A DNA stretch of 64,000 nucleotides, taken from positions 1-64,000 of the forward strand of contig CALIKX010000026.1 in the NCBI GenBank assembly GCA_938017905.1, given 5' to 3'. The notes under the pieces were generated by a model that saw nothing but the letters and a program-made list of their open reading frames with translations, searched no databases and was not told the DNA's origin. The position numbers were made by a program, and so were the translations under genes. This document shows, one piece after another, positions 1 to 61,487 of this stretch (its first letter is position 1; each line of letters opens with the position of its first letter). The stretch is from an uncultured Thermoleophilia bacterium. GTDB taxonomy: Bacteria > Actinomycetota > Thermoleophilia > Miltoncostaeales > Miltoncostaeaceae.

Positions 1-636
1 CAACGCGCCGATCATCCCCTTGCGCGATGCACCGACGAGGACGGGGCGCCCCAGCGAGGTGATCACCCGGAGCCCCCGAAGCAGCGCGAGGTTGTGATCG
101 AGCGACTTCCCGAAGCCAATGCCCGGGTCGATCACGATGGCGTCCTCGGCCACGCCCGCGCGGACTGCGGCGGCCATGCGGGTCTCCAGGAACGCGGCGA
201 CCTCGGACGCCACGTCCCCGTAGCGCGGTCCATCCTGCATCGTCAGCGGCTCGCCCTGCATGTGCATGAGGCAGATCCCGACGCCCCTCTCCGCGACCAG
301 CGGAAGCATCGCCGGGTCCCCGCCGGCGGAGACATCGTTCACCAGCACTGCACCGGCGTCGATGGCCGCCCGGGCCACTGCCGCATGCCGGGTGTCGACC
401 GACAGCGGCATCGCCGGCACCGCACCCGCCAGCGCGCGCATCACGGGCGCGAGGCGCGCCATCTCAACCTGCTCCCCAACCGGCGTCGCGCCGGGCCGGG
501 TGCTCTCCGCACCCACGTCGACGATTGCCGCCCCGCCGGCGGCCATGGCGCGCGCATGCTCAGCGGCAGCGGCGCCATGAAGGTACGCGCCCCCATCGCT
601 GAACGAGTCAGGGGTCACATTGAGGATCCCCATCAC
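1..636 (-). CDS. folP: Dihydropteroate synthase, 3' end cut by window edge
   Basis: Condenses 6-hydroxymethyl-dihydropterin diphosphate with p-aminobenzoate to form dihydropteroate in folate synthesis; cytosolic TIM barrel. The visible protein opens with MGILNVTPDSFSDGG and continues with DVGAESTRPGA, the two DHPS signatures, then SVDTRH, a VNDVS loop, DPGIGFGK and a terminal VGASRKG. An in-frame stop at 685-687 leaves only GTG 636 or ATG 633 as starts, so the usual short N-terminal strand before the first signature is absent. It is last in the leftward tlpA-tilS-hpt-ftsH-folP run, 92 nt after ftsH. No folE lies between, unlike many actinobacterial folate clusters. The C-terminus lies outside the window. 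Confidence 0.93.
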   Translation of the reverse strand, partial: MMGILNVTPDSFSDGGAYLHGAAAAEHARAMAAGGAAIVDVGAESTRPGATPVGEQVEMARLAPVMRALAGAVPAMPLSVDTRHAAVARAAIDAGAVLVNDVSAGGDPAMLPLVAERGVGICLMHMQGEPLTMQDGPRYGDVASEVAAFLETRMAAAVRAGVAEDAIVIDPGIGFGKSLDHNLALLRGLRVITSLGRPVLVGASRKGMIGAL

Positions 637-51688: not shown

Positions 51689-53497
51689 GTGAACGCGCTC
51701 CTCCCCCGTCGCGCGGACGTTGCATCACCGCGCTGGTGGGCGTCGCTCGGCCTGATCGCGGTGGCGATGCTGGGCGCGACGCTGCTGTCCTACACGGTGG
51801 TCCTCACCGCGCTTGAGGTATCGCCGCTCCTGCTCGTGCCCGGAGTCGGATCGGCCCTGCTGGCGCGCTTCGGGCGTTCCTTCTGGCCGGCGGTCGCGGT
51901 GGGCGATGCCGTGGGGCAGGTGATCATGCACGACCGGCCCCTCGGCATCGTGGCCCTCTCCGTGCTCGTCCACGTGGTCGCCTGCGCGGCCTGCGCGACG
52001 TGGCTCCAGCGCTCCGGGTGCTGGCTGCGCAACCTCGGCCAGGCCATACGGTTTGCCGGCATCTCAGCCGTCATCAGCATCGCGGGCGCCGCGCTCACGG
52101 CGTCGCTGTTGGCGGCCGCCGGGGACATCCCGCCGCAGTATGGGGTCGCCGAGACAGGCGGGTGGCTGCTGATGGGCTACATGGCCGGGTTCCTGGTGGG
52201 TGGCGCGTTCGTCCTGGCGTGGGGCGACCCCGACCTGCCCCTCTCCGATGCCGTCCGGCACCCGGTGGCGATGGCCGCATTCGTCGGCGTCACCGCATGT
52301 GCCGGTGTCGGCCTGCTGGGCGAGATCGGCCCGCTGGTGCCCGTCGCGCTGCTCGGGGCGATCGCCGTGGCGGGGCGCAGCGGCGCACGGTGGGCCACCG
52401 CCTGCATGCTCGCCATCGCCATCATCACGATCGAGGCCTCGCACCGCGGAATGGAGCCACCCTTCGGCGGGGACGACCCCGCGGAGCACGCGGCGAATGC
52501 GATGCTTGCACTCTCACTCTTCGCGGCGGCGGCAATCATGCTGGCGGGCTACCGGCAGGCGGGCCCGGACCGCACGCGCTCCGCCACCACCGTGGCCCTC
52601 GTGTTCGCAGCCCTCATGCTGATTGCCGGGGTCACGGCCCTGGCAGCCAATGAGGTGGCGCTGAACCGCACCACGCCCTACGTGCTGTCGGGCCTGCTCT
52701 CCCTGGGCGCGGCCGCCGGCCTGGGCGTACTGCGGATCTCGCGGACGCCGGCCACGCCCTCCACGCGACGGGGCGTGCTGCTGGCCCTCGGCGCTGGTGC
52801 GGTCTACGTGATGAACCTCGCCCTGTACCTGCAGGCCGTCCCGGAGATCGGATCGGGCCCGGCGACGGGCCTCGCCATGACGGCCCCGCTCTGGATCGTC
52901 GGCCTCGGCATGCTGGCCTACCGAACCCGGCCCACGCGGGCGGTCGTGGTGGCCGTCGCGCTGATCGTGGCGGGCGCCATCGCCATCGCCGCCGAGGCGA
53001 CCTCCAACCCTGCCGGAGTCGCGCTGGCGCTCGGATCCGCGGCCGTATTCGCCGGATCGGTCATCATCACGAAGCAGGCCCTTGCACACGCCAACGTCAT
53101 CGACGTGGCCCTGGCATCGGCGCTCGCGGCGGCACTGGTGGCCCTGATGATCGGCGTGATCACGGAGGGGCTCGATGCCTTCGGCCTCACGGCGGCGGAG
53201 TACGGCGCCCTCGCCCTGGCCGCACTGGGCGCCCAACTCGCTCCCACCCTGGGCCGCTCCTGGGCGCTGTCGCAGATCAGCGCCGACGTGGTGGGCGCCG
53301 AGGGAGTGCTGGCACCGGTGACCACCGCAGTGCTCTCCTTCTGGTTCCTCGACGCCGCCACCACCGGCGGGGATGTCGCGGGCCTGGTGCTGATCGCCAC
53401 CGGCGCCGTGGTGGCCGCCCTCATGGGGTCGCGCGGGACCGCGCCACCGCCCGAGGTGCCGCGGGGCACGGCCGTCCCGGCCGCCGCGCGCCCCTAG
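51689..53497 (+). CDS. MASE1-like sensor region fused to an EamA-type transporter domain
   Basis: 602 residues, about 18 membrane helices. The first 300 residues look like MASE1, a membrane sensory domain: VPGVGSALLARFGRSFWPAV, VAVGDAVGQVI, then GGWLLMGYMAGFLVGGAF. From about 355 to 585 the protein follows the EamA/DMT drug-metabolite transporter pattern (GVLLALGAGAVYVMNLALYL, ALALGSAAVFAGSVIITKQA, EGVLAPVTTAVLSFWFLDAA). MASE1 normally sits before kinase or GGDEF domains, so this pairing is unusual. Start GTG 51689 was set by the promoter spacing. The stop is shared in CTAG with the multicopper oxidase gene. Confidence 0.65.
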   Translation: MNALLPRRADVASPRWWASLGLIAVAMLGATLLSYTVVLTALEVSPLLLVPGVGSALLARFGRSFWPAVAVGDAVGQVIMHDRPLGIVALSVLVHVVACAACATWLQRSGCWLRNLGQAIRFAGISAVISIAGAALTASLLAAAGDIPPQYGVAETGGWLLMGYMAGFLVGGAFVLAWGDPDLPLSDAVRHPVAMAAFVGVTACAGVGLLGEIGPLVPVALLGAIAVAGRSGARWATACMLAIAIITIEASHRGMEPPFGGDDPAEHAANAMLALSLFAAAAIMLAGYRQAGPDRTRSATTVALVFAALMLIAGVTALAANEVALNRTTPYVLSGLLSLGAAAGLGVLRISRTPATPSTRRGVLLALGAGAVYVMNLALYLQAVPEIGSGPATGLAMTAPLWIVGLGMLAYRTRPTRAVVVAVALIVAGAIAIAAEATSNPAGVALALGSAAVFAGSVIITKQALAHANVIDVALASALAAALVALMIGVITEGLDAFGLTAAEYGALALAALGAQLAPTLGRSWALSQISADVVGAEGVLAPVTTAVLSFWFLDAATTGGDVAGLVLIATGAVVAALMGSRGTAPPPEVPRGTAVPAAARP

Positions 53498-55026
53498 GGC
53501 ACCACCATCACCTCGGCCATCATGCCGTGGTCCTCGTGCACCAGGACATGGCAGTGGAACACGAACCGCCCCGTGAAATCGGCGAAGCGCTGGCGGATGG
53601 TGATTCGGCTGTTCGGCGGCATGGCGATGGAGTCGGCCCACTCCGGTTGCCCCTTCACCGGCTTTCCGTTGCGCGCGACCACCTGGTACGGGTCGATGTG
53701 GATGTGGAAGTTGTGCCACTCCGGGCTGTTGTTCACCAGCAGCCACTCCTCCACGGTGTTCAGCTTCGGGCTGAACATGGGCCGCGGCTGGGTGCCCGTG
53801 CCGTGGGCGAACAGCTTGCCGTTCACGAAGAACTGGCCCTTCGCCGGGTTCTGTGTGAACACCACGCGGCGGCGGGCGGCGATGGAGACGCGGTCCCCGC
53901 GCAGGTCGTCTGCCTTACCCAGGAACGAGGGCACCGGCCGCCTGCGCATGGCCTGCCCCGCCACGCGCAGGGTGGCGACCTTCACCGATGGCTGGACCCC
54001 GAACGGCGTCGGACGCTGCTGGAAGAACTGCTGGGCCAGGGTGAAGTCACCAGTCTCGGCACCCGCGCGTACCAGCACCTCGAACCGCTGCCCGGGGGCC
54101 AGGAAGATCTCCGACATCCGCTGCGGATGCTGGAGGGTCACCCCGTCGCGGGCCAGCAGGAAGTACTCGCCGCCAGCCGGCGCGATCTTCAGGAACCGTT
54201 CCGTGGAGGCGTTGACCAGCCGCCAGCGCTGCGACTCGCCCGGTCGGATGTCGATGCGTGGCTGCAGTTGCCCGTTGATGATGATGAGCCGGTCCTTCGG
54301 GGGGCGACCCTGGCTGGCCCCGGTGGACGACCCGCGCACCTGCGTGTTCTGGAACACCATGACCCGGTCGGTCAGGTCGCCGATTCCCGGGATGTCATCC
54401 AGGCCGCCGCGCACGATGATGGTGCCCGCCTGCCCGGCGAAGGTCTGCATGTCCACGTAGCGGTGGTGGTGCGGGTGGTACCAGAACACGCCCGGCGGGT
54501 GGTTCTCCGGGATCTTGTACCGGTACTGGTAGTTGGTGCCGGGGCGGATGGTGAGGAACACGTTGTCCTGCGGGGAATCCGGCGACACATGCAGCCCGTG
54601 CACGTGCAGGTTCGTGATCGCACCCTTGGGTTGCACGAACGGACCGATGTCCTGCGTCTGCGGCAGGTAGCCCTCCGGCAGGCGGTTGCGCAGCAGCACG
54701 TTCAGGTCGTCACCGGGACTGATCTTCCAGGTGGGCGCCGCGAACTGGGCCGCGTAGGTCTGGCTCGACACCTTGCGCCCCCCCACCAGCACGGTGCGCG
54801 TGCGGGGCGTCATCACCACGTCCAGCTCGCCGCCCCGGGACCCCATCACGGGGGGATCGCGCAGGGGCTCATCGGTGACGAAGTCCACGCACGCCTCGCA
54901 GGGCGGCGGCTGCTGGCCGGCCACGACGGCGGCGCCTGCCGCGGTGCCCGCAACCACCGCGCACCCGCCGATGGTGGCGAGCACCAGCCGCGGCCGACGG
55001 CGGAACGTTGAGCGATCAGCAGCCAA
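53494..55026 (-). CDS. Exported multicopper oxidase
   Basis: About 510 residues, three cupredoxin domains. Copper ligands: NLHVHGLHVSPD and WYHPHHHRYVD (first pair), HNFHIHIDPYQ (third), and the C-terminal HCHVLVHEDHGMM carrying the type 1 Cys-His-Met set. A leader with basic residues FRRRPRLVLATIGGCAVVAG resembles a Tat or Sec signal. Probably oxidises metals or phenolics outside the cell. The start is uncertain: TTG 55026 begins just before the signal, while ATG 55104 would overlap the upstream pentapeptide gene by 89 nt. Shares its CTAG stop with the preceding plus-strand gene. Confidence 0.87.
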   Translation of the reverse strand: MAADRSTFRRRPRLVLATIGGCAVVAGTAAGAAVVAGQQPPPCEACVDFVTDEPLRDPPVMGSRGGELDVVMTPRTRTVLVGGRKVSSQTYAAQFAAPTWKISPGDDLNVLLRNRLPEGYLPQTQDIGPFVQPKGAITNLHVHGLHVSPDSPQDNVFLTIRPGTNYQYRYKIPENHPPGVFWYHPHHHRYVDMQTFAGQAGTIIVRGGLDDIPGIGDLTDRVMVFQNTQVRGSSTGASQGRPPKDRLIIINGQLQPRIDIRPGESQRWRLVNASTERFLKIAPAGGEYFLLARDGVTLQHPQRMSEIFLAPGQRFEVLVRAGAETGDFTLAQQFFQQRPTPFGVQPSVKVATLRVAGQAMRRRPVPSFLGKADDLRGDRVSIAARRRVVFTQNPAKGQFFVNGKLFAHGTGTQPRPMFSPKLNTVEEWLLVNNSPEWHNFHIHIDPYQVVARNGKPVKGQPEWADSIAMPPNSRITIRQRFADFTGRFVFHCHVLVHEDHGMMAEVMVVP

Positions 55027-55888
55027 AGGGACCCACCCCCGGGAGACCGCTGTTGTAGCCGGGCGTCGCGGGCCGCCCATCGGGGCAGGTGACGGTGCCG
55101 CCATCGGGCCCGCCCGCGCCCCCGTTTGCAGAGAAGTCCCAGCTCCAGGTGGAGCCGGTGAGCGCCGCGCCGGTCATGGGCGTTCCCCTCAGGGTCGTGT
55201 TGCCGAGGAACGACGCGTAGATGAGCACCGACCCCGACAGGTCGATGCCGGCCAGGTCGGCGTCCGTGAACGTCGCGCCCCACATGTTCGCGGTGGGACC
55301 GGCGAACCAGCCCTGCACCACGCGCCACCCGGCGGGCACCGCGCGGGGCGTGCCCGTCACGTTCGCACCGGCCACGTTGGTGAGGCGGGCTCCGGTGAAG
55401 TCCGCGCCATCCACGGTGGTGCGCAGCATCAGCGCGCCACCCAGGTTGGCGCGGGTGAGGTTCGCATCCGTCAGGTCGGCACGCGTGAGCATGATGGTGC
55501 CATCCATGCGCGCACGCGTGAGGTTGGCGCCCTTCAGGTTCGCGCGCGTCAGCCCCGCGGCAGTCATCCGCGCGCCGGCGGCGCGCACGCGCACCATCCG
55601 CGCGCCGGAGAGGTTGGCCAACTGCAGGCGGGCGCGGTACAGGTTGGCCCCGGACAGGTTGGCCCGCTGCAGCGACGAGCCCCGGAAGTCCGCAAAGCGG
55701 AGATTGCGCCCGGCCAGATTGATCCGCCGCAGGTCCATGTTCCGGCAGGTGGTGTGACGCGCGGCCGTGGGGGACGCGACGATGCGGCAGTCGCGCACGT
55801 CACTGGCATGCGCAGCTGAGGCCAGCAGGCCGCCCGCCGCGAGGGCGAGGGCGGAAGCACCGATCGTTGCCGAGCGGAGAACGGCCAC
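55016..55888 (-). CDS. Secreted pentapeptide-repeat protein
   Basis: 290 residues. A signal peptide (about 1-28, ending SAAHASD) is followed by a right-handed beta-helix of A(D/N)Lxx repeats: INLAGRNLRFADFRGSSLQR, ANLSGANLYRARLQLANLSG, LTRANLKGANLTRARM, LTRADLTDANLTRANLGGAL, and FTDADLAGIDLSGSVL after a short break. Cysteines at DCRIV and TTCRN may bond. The C-terminus is Gly-rich with TCPDGRP and a final Cys. It precedes and overlaps the oxidase gene, so both are probably exported together. GTG 55888 lies 6 nt after TAGGCT. Confidence 0.85.
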   Translation of the reverse strand: MAVLRSATIGASALALAAGGLLASAAHASDVRDCRIVASPTAARHTTCRNMDLRRINLAGRNLRFADFRGSSLQRANLSGANLYRARLQLANLSGARMVRVRAAGARMTAAGLTRANLKGANLTRARMDGTIMLTRADLTDANLTRANLGGALMLRTTVDGADFTGARLTNVAGANVTGTPRAVPAGWRVVQGWFAGPTANMWGATFTDADLAGIDLSGSVLIYASFLGNTTLRGTPMTGAALTGSTWSWDFSANGGAGGPDGGTVTCPDGRPATPGYNSGLPGVGPFGC

Positions 55889-58464: not shown

Positions 58465-59421
58465 ATGCCCGAGGTGCGCATCGATGAGAGCGTCACCCCG
58501 GCAGCGCACCGCGCCGGCCTCACGGCCGCGCTGGAGGCGCGCCGGGTGGACAACCGGTTCCACTACGCGGGCGGCGCAGCCGCCGCCCGGTGGCGCGCCC
58601 TCGCTGCCGAGCACTCCCCGTCGCGCGACGATGCGGACGGGCTGATGGCCTACGAGGCAGCCGCACGAGCCGTTGTGAGCGCCCTGCCCGACGGACCCGT
58701 GCACGTGATCGGCGTGGGGTGCGGCGATGGCGTGAAGGAACGACGCCTGCTGGGCGCGCTCGCCGGCACCGGACGACGGGGAATCGCCGCGACGCCCGTG
58801 GACGTGAGCGTGCCGCTGGTCACGGCGGCCGCGGAGGCCATGCAGGCGGTCCCCGCCGTGGACGCCACGCACGCGGTAGCCGTGGACATCACGACGGTGC
58901 GCGACCTCTCCCCCCTCCTCGCCCCGCGCCTGCCGGGCACGCGCGTGGTGACACTGTTCGGGGTGCTGTCCACGCTGGGCGATGGCGCGCTGGCCCCGGC
59001 AATGTCGCTGCTGGGCCGCGGGGACATCCTCATGGCGAGTGCCAACCTGCTGCCCCCATCGCCGGATGCGCGCGATGTGGTGATGGCCCAGTACGACAAC
59101 CGGCCCACCCGCGAGTGGCTTGGGACCGTTCTGACGGAGATCGGGGTGGGTGGCGCCGACGACATCCGGTTCCGCTGGGAGCAGTCGCCTACCGGCGACA
59201 CGGTGGTGGGCGAGGTGACCCCGCCCGCGCAGGTGATGGCAACGGTCAGCGGCGTCACCGTGGGGCTGCCGGCGGGAATGCCCATTCGCGTCCTGGAGTC
59301 CCATCGGCACTCGGCCGATGGCCTGTCGCGCATGCTGGCAGCAGCCGGCCTGGACGTCCAGGCCACATGCGTGTCGCCCAGTGGCGAGGAGGGCGTGGCC
59401 GTGGGGGTCAGCCGGGGCTGA
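58465..59421 (+). CDS. EgtD-like (Methyltransf_33) methyltransferase
   Basis: 318 residues. The core follows histidine N-alpha-methyltransferase EgtD: VHVIGVGCGDGVKERRLLGA (SAM motif), VDVSVPLVTAAAEAM, RVVTLFGVLSTLGDGALAP, ASANLLPPSPDARDVVMAQY then DNRPTREWLGTVLTEIGVGG, and a C-terminal VLESHRHSADGLSRMLAAAG. The histidine-binding residues cannot be checked by eye, and no ergothioneine partners (egtB, egtC, egtE) are near. The substrate is thus open. Its 3' end overlaps the convergent DHPS-like gene by 14 nt. Confidence 0.65.
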   Translation: MPEVRIDESVTPAAHRAGLTAALEARRVDNRFHYAGGAAAARWRALAAEHSPSRDDADGLMAYEAAARAVVSALPDGPVHVIGVGCGDGVKERRLLGALAGTGRRGIAATPVDVSVPLVTAAAEAMQAVPAVDATHAVAVDITTVRDLSPLLAPRLPGTRVVTLFGVLSTLGDGALAPAMSLLGRGDILMASANLLPPSPDARDVVMAQYDNRPTREWLGTVLTEIGVGGADDIRFRWEQSPTGDTVVGEVTPPAQVMATVSGVTVGLPAGMPIRVLESHRHSADGLSRMLAAAGLDVQATCVSPSGEEGVAVGVSRG

Positions 59422-60355
59422 TGTCCCCGGGCGCGAGCGCCCCGAGGGTGTCCAGCACGGCGCGCACCCGTGGCACCTCATGCGTGCGGAAGAGGCCCGT
59501 GCGCCCCATGGCCGCGAGGACCGCGAAGAACGGCTCGGCGCTTCGCACCTCGTCCTCGAAGTAGTCGAACGCATGCGGCAGGGCGTGGCACACCGGCCAG
59601 CCCAGCACGCGCAGACGGAAGGTGTTCAGGAACACCTTCATCTGATGACGCACCCGGGTGGGCCCGTCCAGCAGGTTGCCGTAGTAGAAGCCCAGCCCCG
59701 GGTCGATGACGATGCGCTCCACGCCCTGGGCCACCGCGCGGTCGATGCGCGGACCGAAGTGCTCCAGCAGTGCGGGCACGGGGTCGTCCCCCAGCACCAG
59801 GTCGTGCACCTCGCGCACGTTCGCGCCCTGCACGAAGCACATGATGACGGCCGCGTCATGCTCCGCCGCGGTCGCGTACATCTCGTCCTCGCGCTCGACC
59901 CCCGTGAGGTTCAGCACCGCGGCCCCCGCCCCCAGCGCAACCCGGGCGACGTCCGGTGAGTAGGTCTCCACCGAGGCCGGGATCCCATCCGCCCGCAGCC
60001 CCTCGATGACCGGCAGCACCCCTGCCAGCTGATCGGCGGGCGATACCCGCGCGGCGCCGGCGAGGGTGGATTCCGCCCCGATGTCCACGATCAGCGCACC
60101 CTGCGCGGCGAGCACCCGGCCCCGGCGGATCGCCGCCTCGGGCGACGGCGACACCGACTCCCGATACCACGAATCGCGCGACAGGTTGACCACCCCCATC
60201 AGCGCGGGCCGCTCGTCGGGATCAAATGGCCGGCCGCCGATGTCGAAGGCACGCACGGGCGCGCGCAGCGCGTCGGCGTGGGCATCCGCGAGGGCGGCCA
60301 TCTGTGCGAGCAGCGGTGACGGCGAGGACATGCCCCCAACGGTACCGCGCGTCAT
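59408..60355 (-). CDS. Divergent dihydropteroate-synthase-like protein
   Basis: About 315 residues with the DHPS barrel: ALMGVVNLSRDSWYRESVSP replaces the NVTPDSFSDG loop, ALIVDIGAESTLAGAARVSP keeps DIGAEST, ASVETYSPDVARVALGAGAA, VLNLTGVEREDEM and RIVIDPGLGFYYGNLLDGPT follow. A terminal KxxSR motif like that of FolP (SRKG) was not found. The true folP is at the left edge of the window. This copy may use another pterin-like or aminobenzoate-like substrate. ATG 60355 overlaps the preceding gene (ATGA); ATG 60331 is the alternative. Confidence 0.7.
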   Translation of the reverse strand: MTRGTVGGMSSPSPLLAQMAALADAHADALRAPVRAFDIGGRPFDPDERPALMGVVNLSRDSWYRESVSPSPEAAIRRGRVLAAQGALIVDIGAESTLAGAARVSPADQLAGVLPVIEGLRADGIPASVETYSPDVARVALGAGAAVLNLTGVEREDEMYATAAEHDAAVIMCFVQGANVREVHDLVLGDDPVPALLEHFGPRIDRAVAQGVERIVIDPGLGFYYGNLLDGPTRVRHQMKVFLNTFRLRVLGWPVCHALPHAFDYFEDEVRSAEPFFAVLAAMGRTGLFRTHEVPRVRAVLDTLGALAPGDISPG

Positions 60356-60858
60356 GCGGCGGGCAGGGTGACCATCGGGCCCTCGGCGGGAATCACCACG
60401 CGGGGCGCGACGGCAAGGAGGGTCGCGGCATCCACGCCCGGCCCCGGCACGATCACCCCGTCGGGGGACACGCGCAGCGCGCGGCCGGGCATCAGCGCCC
60501 GGTGCCGCGCCGACCACCAGGCGGCCTCATGCCGGGCATCCAGCGGAAGCCGCTGCATGCCCGGCGGCGGCGGTTCCTCCGGCCCGACGACGCGCCCGCC
60601 GGTCAGGTGCACCACCTCCGCGACCTCGTCGGCGTCGGCCGGGTGGGTGCAGAGGATGCTGACCGCGCCGCCGAGGCGCGCGAGATCGCGCACGATGGCG
60701 CGGTGGAACCGGGCGCGATCCACGTCGTCGGTTGGCAGGACCGGATCCACCAGCACCATGTGGTCGCCGTGCTCGAGGTACGTGGCGGCGCGCGGGGCGC
60801 CGCCAGCGCCAGCGACGGCCCACCGCCACAGCCCCTCGTGAATCCTCGTGACCTCCAC
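60352..60858 (-). CDS. Metallo-beta-lactamase-like protein lacking the metal motif
   Basis: 168 residues. The pattern TRIHEGLWRWAVAGAGGAPR, ATYLEHGDHMVLVDPVLPTD, ILCTHPADADEVAEVVHLTG and VVIPAEGPMV follows the metallo-beta-lactamase fold, but the HxHxDH metal motif reads THPADADEV, so catalysis as a hydrolase is unlikely. GTG 60858 lies 7 nt after TACCGT and begins a two-gene unit with the DHPS-like gene. Role unknown; it may bind a ligand. Confidence 0.65.
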   Translation of the reverse strand: MEVTRIHEGLWRWAVAGAGGAPRAATYLEHGDHMVLVDPVLPTDDVDRARFHRAIVRDLARLGGAVSILCTHPADADEVAEVVHLTGGRVVGPEEPPPPGMQRLPLDARHEAAWWSARHRALMPGRALRVSPDGVIVPGPGVDAATLLAVAPRVVIPAEGPMVTLPAA

Positions 60859-60923: not shown

Positions 60924-61487
60924 ATGGCCCGGATGGCGCGCTGGCTCGGCATGGAATTGCTCACGTGGCTGATCGCAGGCGCGGTCCTGGTGCTGGTGCT
61001 CGCCCTGGTCGCGCCGCCGGTGGTTGCCGTGGTGGTGGGCGGGGCGGTCACGGCGGTGCTGGCACTCGGCAGCTGGTCACGGCGCGGACGCGAGGGTCTG
61101 GCCCGCCGCCGCGGCCTCTCCGCCGCCGAGGAAATGACGGGGGAGGAGTTCGAGGACTGGCTGGCCATCCTCTTCCGCGCCGCGGGCTGGCGCGTACGCC
61201 ACACCCGGGCATCCGGTGACTTCGGGGCGGACCTGGTGCTGGGGCACGGGGCGGCGGACGAGGTGGTGGTGCAGGCGAAGCGGCAGGGCCGACCGGTGGG
61301 CGTCGCGGCGGTGCAGCAGGCCGCCGCAGCGCGCCTGCACTACGGCACTGGTGAGGCGATGGTGGTGACCAACAGCACCTTCACGCCCGCGGCGGTCGAA
61401 CTGGCGGCCACCACGGGCGTCACGCTGTGGGACCGCGACGACGTGGCGCGCGAGCTGCTGGGCGGGCGCCACACCGTTGACGCCTGA
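60924..61487 (+). CDS. Membrane-anchored Mrr-type restriction-endonuclease-fold protein
   Basis: 187 residues. Two transmembrane helices (about 11-32 and 34-50) precede a basic linker and a Mrr_cat domain. Nuclease residues: Glu in EEFEDWLAILFRAAGWRV, Asp in SGDFGADLVLGH, and QxK in VVVQAKRQGRPVG, giving the E-D-QxK active site; VQQAAAARLHYGTGEAMVVT follows, as in Mrr. It likely cleaves DNA near the membrane, either foreign or modified DNA. No methylase or other defence gene adjoins it. Confidence 0.78.
   Translation: MARMARWLGMELLTWLIAGAVLVLVLALVAPPVVAVVVGGAVTAVLALGSWSRRGREGLARRRGLSAAEEMTGEEFEDWLAILFRAAGWRVRHTRASGDFGADLVLGHGAADEVVVQAKRQGRPVGVAAVQQAAAARLHYGTGEAMVVTNSTFTPAAVELAATTGVTLWDRDDVARELLGGRHTVDA

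What the first reader, a model, noticed from the sequence alone, without database searches (positions are those of the whole stretch)
58465..60858. Second DHPS-like gene facing an EgtD-like methyltransferase and following a metal-less MBL-fold gene
The window has a normal folP at its left edge. The copy at 59408 changes NVTPDSFSDG to NLSRDSWYRE and lacks a visible SRKG box while keeping DIGAEST and DPGLGF, so it probably binds a different pterin-like or aryl-amine substrate. It is coupled to a metallo-beta-lactamase-fold protein without metal ligands and ends tail-to-tail with an EgtD-like methyltransferase that lacks ergothioneine partners. Three families are each present in off-type form, which suggests an uncharacterised small-molecule pathway.
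Basis: partly seen in the sequence, partly recalled or inferred. Interest (0 to 1): 0.55.

Follow-up and report, generated by a model that had tools for sequence, protein, structure and literature searches.

The report
Off-type DHPS paired with EgtD-like methyltransferase
Freshwater actinobacteria and many Verrucomicrobiota carry a second, strongly altered copy of the folate enzyme that sulfa drugs target, often back to back with an altered ergothioneine-type methyltransferase, which points to an uncharacterised pathway that probably starts from a folate precursor.

Summary
The window is a Miltoncostaeales MAG. P0002 (59408-60355, -) is a DHPS homologue below the DHPS cut-off. It belongs to a separate clade in which the SRK lysine (33/33 rows A) and two more p-aminobenzoate-pocket residues are replaced, while the pyrophosphate-site Arg/His and most pterin-site residues stay. 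A normal folP is present as well. P0001 (58465-59421, +) has the EgtD fold but is not EgtD; the genome has a real EgtB-EgtD pair elsewhere. The two genes lie tail to tail in 34 of 80 fetched DHPS-like loci from two phyla (3 more with a transporter between). In a Verrucomicrobiota sample MT was found in 5 of 5 genomes with the DHPS-like gene and 0 of 44 without; in Limisphaerales the link is loose (64 of 101). Distant sisters of the DHPS-like gene sit in folB-folK and folB-SDR operons. Best reading: a neofunctionalised pterin-CH2 transferase with a non-pABA acceptor, linked to a methyltransferase. The metallo-beta-lactamase-like gene is a genus-specific neighbour that also occurs without the pair. 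Substrates and product are unknown.

The parts
58465..59421 (+). EgtD-like SAM methyltransferase (P0001), own family, not EgtD
   Evidence: Pfam Methyltransf_33 1e-7; TIGR03438 24.8 of 290.9 bits; model pLDDT 92.7, the 15 best PDB matches are all EgtD
59408..60355 (-). DHPS-like protein (P0002) with replaced SRK and loop 1; likely start 60331 or 60355
   Evidence: Pterin_bind 9e-31; TIGR01496 117.5 of 162.6 bits; separate clade; motif columns; model pLDDT 88.1, the 50 best PDB matches listed are DHPS or Sul enzymes
60352..60858 (-). MBL-like protein without visible metal ligands (P0003; open frame to 60921); neighbour, probably not part of the module
1..636 (-). 5' part of the normal folP (remainder on contig C38)

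Best explanation
P0002 is a neofunctionalised DHPS. It keeps the TIM barrel, most pterin-pocket residues and the pyrophosphate site, so it most likely takes 6-hydroxymethyl-7,8-dihydropterin pyrophosphate (or a near relative), lets pyrophosphate leave and transfers the pterin-CH2 group, as DHPS does, but to an acceptor other than p-aminobenzoate. P0001, an EgtD-fold methyltransferase with a changed side-chain pocket, methylates the acceptor or the conjugate. The pair is thus a two-enzyme module for a methylated non-folate pterin conjugate. SHOWN: subfamily identity, residue changes, canonical paralogues in the same genome, conserved pairing, one case of joint decay. INFERRED: use of the pterin pyrophosphate, a different acceptor, methylation in the same pathway. 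UNKNOWN: acceptor, product, role. Confidence by step: not an ordinary DHPS 0.8; MT functionally linked where present 0.7; the chemistry as a whole 0.4.
For: Separate clade from folP, support 100. Columns: K of SRK is K in 13/13 folP, A in 33/33 DHPS-like rows; DSF becomes DSW in 33/33; TRP proline 13/13 becomes mostly A; RxH kept 33/33; N and D of the pterin pocket kept; D of SVD becomes E 33/33. Normal DHPS over the cut-off in 22 of 30 genomes tested, DHPS-like copies always below. Pairing: 34 of 80 fetched loci tail to tail, 3 more with an MFS gene between, 1 with MT upstream on the same strand. Verrucomicrobiota sample: MT in 5 of 5 with DHPS-like (G042, four), 0 of 44 without (one weak EgtD-type match in G064). 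Miltoncostaeales: 15 both, 1 MT only, 26 neither, of 42. G024: DHPS-like reduced to residues about 4-33 plus 225-314, MT not found in that genome. Pterin context: folB-folK-DHPS-like overlapping operon in G461, which has its own folP elsewhere; folB-DHPS-like-SDR on a Roseibium plasmid; in four Methylacidiphilum-like genomes MT stands head to head with an SDR, whose best NCBIfam match in the two scanned is TmpR, below cut-off.
Against: In Limisphaerales 37 of 101 DHPS-like genomes show no MT (Fisher p 0.046); MAG gaps may explain some, hardly all. 42 of 80 loci hold no MT (7 of them with under 1.5 kb left). Tail-to-tail genes need not be co-transcribed. The folB/folK contexts come from a sister subclade (two cases) in which I saw no MT beside the gene. 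The TmpR-like SDR beside MT may simply be the dihydrofolate reductase, since FolA is reported missing in Methylacidiphilum (PMC2474590, passages). No substrate was tested.
Confidence: 0.45

Rival explanations
1. A second folate DHPS (isozyme or naturally sulfonamide-insensitive form) that still makes dihydropteroate; the methyltransferase is a bystander.
For: folB-folK-DHPS-like operon in G461 looks like a folate operon. The Methylacidiphilum fumariolicum papers list folP1 and folP2, both expressed (PMC3404531 and PMC5623727, passages). Eight of 30 genomes tested show no canonical DHPS over the cut-off, though they were chosen for this.
Against: SRK lysine, loop-1 Phe and loop-2 Pro of the pABA pocket are replaced; these residues form that pocket in S. 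aureus DHPS (PMC6057106, passage). A canonical DHPS is usually present. All copies lie below the DHPS equivalog cut-off.
Confidence: 0.2
2. DHPS-like enzyme has a new function, but the methyltransferase is only a co-inherited neighbour with an unrelated substrate.
For: 37 of 101 Limisphaerales genomes have DHPS-like without MT; in Methylacidiphilum-like genomes the two genes are about 14-35 kb apart.
Against: 5 of 5 against 0 of 44 at phylum level, the convergent pair in two phyla, loss of MT with decay of the DHPS-like gene in G024.
Confidence: 0.25
3. The first reader's three-gene pathway, with the metal-less MBL protein as third enzyme or chaperone.
For: Found near the DHPS-like gene in the 10 Miltoncostaeales-type loci of the 80, in the window on the same strand with overlapping ends.
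Against: Present in 19 of 20 genomes of the genus, four of them without an intact DHPS-like gene found; no A3 match in the other 70 loci.
Confidence: 0.07

Closest known systems
Dihydropteroate synthase FolP (TIGR01496)
   Same: TIM barrel, N of NVT, GAEST, N and D of the pterin pocket, DPGxGF, RxH
   Different: SRK replaced by PHA, DSFSDGG by DSWYRES, SVDT by SVET, aspartate of NDV deleted; below cut-off; own clade
EgtD, histidine N-alpha-methyltransferase (TIGR03438)
   Same: whole fold (TM 0.79); SAM motifs; columns of EgtD Tyr39, Tyr206, Thr213, Ser284 kept
   Different: Glu282 column hydrophobic, Tyr56 column Ser, Asn166 column kept only in Verrucomicrobiota; no EgtB beside it; own clade
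Actinobacterial FolP2 (second folP, not complementing in M. leprae; PMC1971073, passage)
   Same: a second DHPS paralogue thought to have another role
   Different: 2vp8, the solved 'dihydropteroate synthase 2', scores below most canonical DHPS chains (79.8 against up to 114.5 bits); FolP2 is said to cluster with cell-wall genes, this one with MT
TIGR00284 dihydropteroate synthase-like protein
   Same: pterin-binding superfamily
   Different: 12.2 bits against a cut-off of 256.65

Membership tests
DHPS (FolP, TIGR01496) | score over the curated cut-off 162.6 bits | tested here: not met
   117.5 bits for P0002; all DHPS-like copies in the 30 genomes below it
DHPS (FolP, TIGR01496) | SRK motif with the lysine that lines the pABA site | tested here: not met
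   K 13/13 in folP, A 33/33 in DHPS-like rows, A and M in the two sisters
DHPS (FolP, TIGR01496) | pyrophosphate-site Arg and His (RxH; role recalled) | tested here: met
   R290 and H292 in 33/33 and both sisters
DHPS (FolP, TIGR01496) | condenses pABA with the pterin pyrophosphate | not testable with these tools
   needs enzyme assay
EgtD (TIGR03438) | score over the cut-off 290.9 bits | tested here: not met
   24.8 bits; the genome's own EgtD scores 314.3
EgtD (TIGR03438) | histidine-pocket residues Tyr56, Asn166, Glu282 (named in PMC8593015) | tested here: not met
   columns read off: Ser, variable, hydrophobic; Tyr39, Tyr206, Thr213, Ser284 columns kept
EgtD (TIGR03438) | EgtB partner gene | tested here: not met
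   none beside P0001 (by eye); the EgtB-EgtD pair is on contig C47
Metallo-beta-lactamase superfamily | HxHxDH metal site | tested here: not met
   not seen in the alignment of 12 members
Metallo-beta-lactamase superfamily | MBL fold | tested here: inconclusive
   Lactamase_B_5 in 3 of 12, best E 0.0083; 2p97 at E 0.17; no model made

The most novel reading that the evidence does not exclude
Verrucomicrobiota (including methanotroph-like genomes) and freshwater Thermoleophilia make a previously unknown pterin-derived cofactor, neither folate nor methanopterin: a pterin-CH2 conjugate built by a dedicated DHPS-like synthase and N-methylated by an EgtD-fold enzyme.
Probability: 0.22. Interest if true: 0.85.

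Novelty: new variant of a known kind. Interest (0 to 1): 0.52.

Why it matters
The gene would be read as dihydropteroate synthase by routine annotation; its Roseibium relative is named so, and the Methylacidiphilum papers list a folP2. If it makes something else, folate and sulfonamide-target annotation is wrong for a whole clade, and an overlooked pterin metabolite awaits discovery. It is testable: DHPS is well understood, and a heterologous host suffices.

Tried and rejected
Riboflavin synthase beside MT in Methylacidiphilum-like genomes as a pathway partner: rejected, it is the single ordinary ribE (9 of 9 genomes with one copy). HisB near the DHPS-like gene there: seen only in that group, not used. 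Cytochrome oxidase assembly genes, DUF192, FeoB, UvrA, prfA, aldose epimerase, potassium-channel-like gene near the DHPS-like gene (named by eye): vary with lineage. FabG-like SDR beside MT in the Solirubrobacterales-type loci: a general reductase, not pteridine-specific. Plasmid search with the MT: no match. Plasmid search with the Roseibium DHPS-like protein: the other 11 records, at 27-40% identity, are annotated as folP. Structure of the MBL-like protein: not predicted, both jobs went to MT and DHPS-like. Literature: nine searches found no description of this pair in their listings; open-licence papers only. Rows dropped before counts: the DHPS tree used 30 representatives of 80 distinct DHPS-like sequences plus 5 added and 14 folP rows; the column table left out the long-branch L151_folP row; A1 holds 30 and A2 holds 28 sequences; one search tested 48 of the 145 genomes; the 30 genomes include 9 picked because one search showed no canonical copy.

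Full report
WHAT IS THERE. The window lies in a 1.54 Mb MAG, 95% complete; close relatives are titled Miltoncostaeales or Thermoleophilia, that is actinobacteria. Three open reading frames match the finding: MT 58465-59421 +, DHPS-like 59408-60355 -, MBL-like 60352-60858 -. MT and DHPS-like end tail to tail with a 14-base overlap.

DHPS-LIKE. P0002 is a Pterin_bind protein (9e-31) but stays below the DHPS equivalog cut-off (117.5 of 162.6 bits). The genome also has a normal folP, split between the left edge of the window and contig C38. The genome collection held 327 encoding stretches, of which the best 80 were kept, at about 59-99% identity and nearly all Actinomycetota or Verrucomicrobiota by title (some titles, such as Bifidobacterium breve or Akkermansia muciniphila, look misnamed). 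In a tree of 49 rows the DHPS-like rows form one side of a branch with support 100 (quick method, long branches flagged). Column table (33 DHPS-like rows of the main group, 2 sisters, 13 folP): DSF to DSW 33/33, SRK to PHA 33/33, SVD to SVE 33/33, the D of NDV deleted 33/33, R290 and H292 kept 33/33, N57, N149 and D218 kept 33/33. In S. aureus DHPS, Phe17, Pro53, Phe172 and Lys203 form the pABA pocket (PMC6057106, passage), and in E. coli sulfanilamide lies between Lys221 and Arg63 (PMC3098144, passage). By motif position (my assignment, numbering recalled), three of those four pocket residues are replaced here and the GF phenylalanine is kept. The AlphaFold model (pLDDT 88.1) matches DHPS and Sul enzymes in all 50 PDB rows listed.

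METHYLTRANSFERASE. P0001 has the full EgtD fold (pLDDT 92.7; the 15 best PDB matches are EgtD, TM up to 0.79) and intact SAM motifs, but scores 24.8 of 290.9 bits for EgtD. Against EgtD columns (residue roles from PMC8593015 passages), Tyr39, Tyr206, Thr213 and Ser284 are kept, Tyr56 becomes Ser, Glu282 becomes hydrophobic, and Asn166 is kept only in Verrucomicrobiota. So a carboxylate-type contact may persist while amine and side-chain recognition changed. A true EgtB-EgtD pair is at G000:C47 (388 and 314 bits, both over cut-off).

PAIRING. Of 80 fetched DHPS-like loci, 34 have MT convergent within 600 bases, 3 convergent with an MFS gene between, 1 upstream on the same strand, 42 none (7 of these with under 1.5 kb left). 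In ten genomes probed by handle, MT is in 9, also where not adjacent. Verrucomicrobiota sample of 145: DHPS-like over 400 bits in 5, each with a second, lower-scoring DHPS match; MT in all five (G042; four) and in 0 of 44 others tested (one weak EgtD-type match). Miltoncostaeales, 42 genomes: 15 both, 1 MT only (G034), 26 neither; G034 and G038 end at contig edges, so some absences there mean little. G024 is telling: MBL-like gene, then a DHPS-like remnant lacking its middle, then an MFS gene, and no MT. Limisphaerales, 116 genomes: 101 DHPS-like, 69 MT, 64 both, Fisher p 0.046: loose. Actinomycetota sample of 396: DHPS-like in 7 at E 1e-60 or better. The DHPS-like and MT trees each join the two actinobacterial groups, which fits transfer of the pair, direction untested.

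CONTEXT. G461 (another actinobacterial class) has a FolB-domain gene (57.8 bits, over the domain cut-off but under the folB equivalog cut-off), folK (134.5 bits, over cut-off) and DHPS-like overlapping in that order, while its normal folP lies elsewhere. A Roseibium porphyridii plasmid carries a gene annotated as dihydroneopterin aldolase (no NCBIfam match at 1e-12), the DHPS-like gene (44.5% identity to P0002) and an SDR whose best match is PRK09134 (254 of 281 bits) and second a pteridine reductase. The M. fumariolicum papers list folP1 and folP2 as expressed; that folP2 is this gene is my guess from its distance to an aldehyde dehydrogenase gene, not tested by sequence. In several Miltoncostaeales an MFS gene of aromatic-acid symporter type (below cut-off) lies beside or between the pair, which hints at a transported small molecule.

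MBL-LIKE GENE. In 19 of 20 genomes of the genus, four of them without an intact DHPS-like gene found; the A3 profile matched 10 of the 80 loci, all Miltoncostaeales-type. One genome of the genus, G027, lacks all three genes. Fold support is weak. I leave it out of the module.

MECHANISM AND VERDICT. Kept pyrophosphate and most pterin-site residues plus folB/folK context argue for the pterin pyrophosphate as donor; the rebuilt acceptor pocket argues against pABA. MT would methylate acceptor or product. This is inference. The alternative that it is a folate isozyme stays at about 0.2. Nine literature searches showed no account of the pair in their listings; a non-complementing folP2 is known in M. 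leprae (PMC1971073, passage) but looks different.

Noticed in passing
G000:C47 (L147:5377-7769): True EgtB-EgtD ergothioneine gene pair next to a glutamate synthase-like gene (by eye) in the window's genome.
   Followed up: partly
L033:8918-10234 and L003, L005, L006, L009, L032, L038, L143: MFS transporter of aromatic-acid symporter type beside or between DHPS-like and MT; in L007 and L034 only pieces match.
   Followed up: partly
window 60924-61487: Mrr_cat restriction-endonuclease-like gene just upstream of the MBL-like gene, also beside it in L142, L143, L145, L146.
   Followed up: no
L047 8010-8900 (G049): DHPS-like frame broken by an in-frame stop after 200 residues; pseudogene or sequencing error.
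   Followed up: no
window 53494-55888: Multicopper-oxidase-like protein and a pentapeptide-repeat-like protein on the minus strand (by eye).
   Followed up: no
L042, L043, L051, L060 and others: Genome records titled Bifidobacterium breve or Akkermansia muciniphila appear to be misnamed freshwater MAGs.
   Followed up: no
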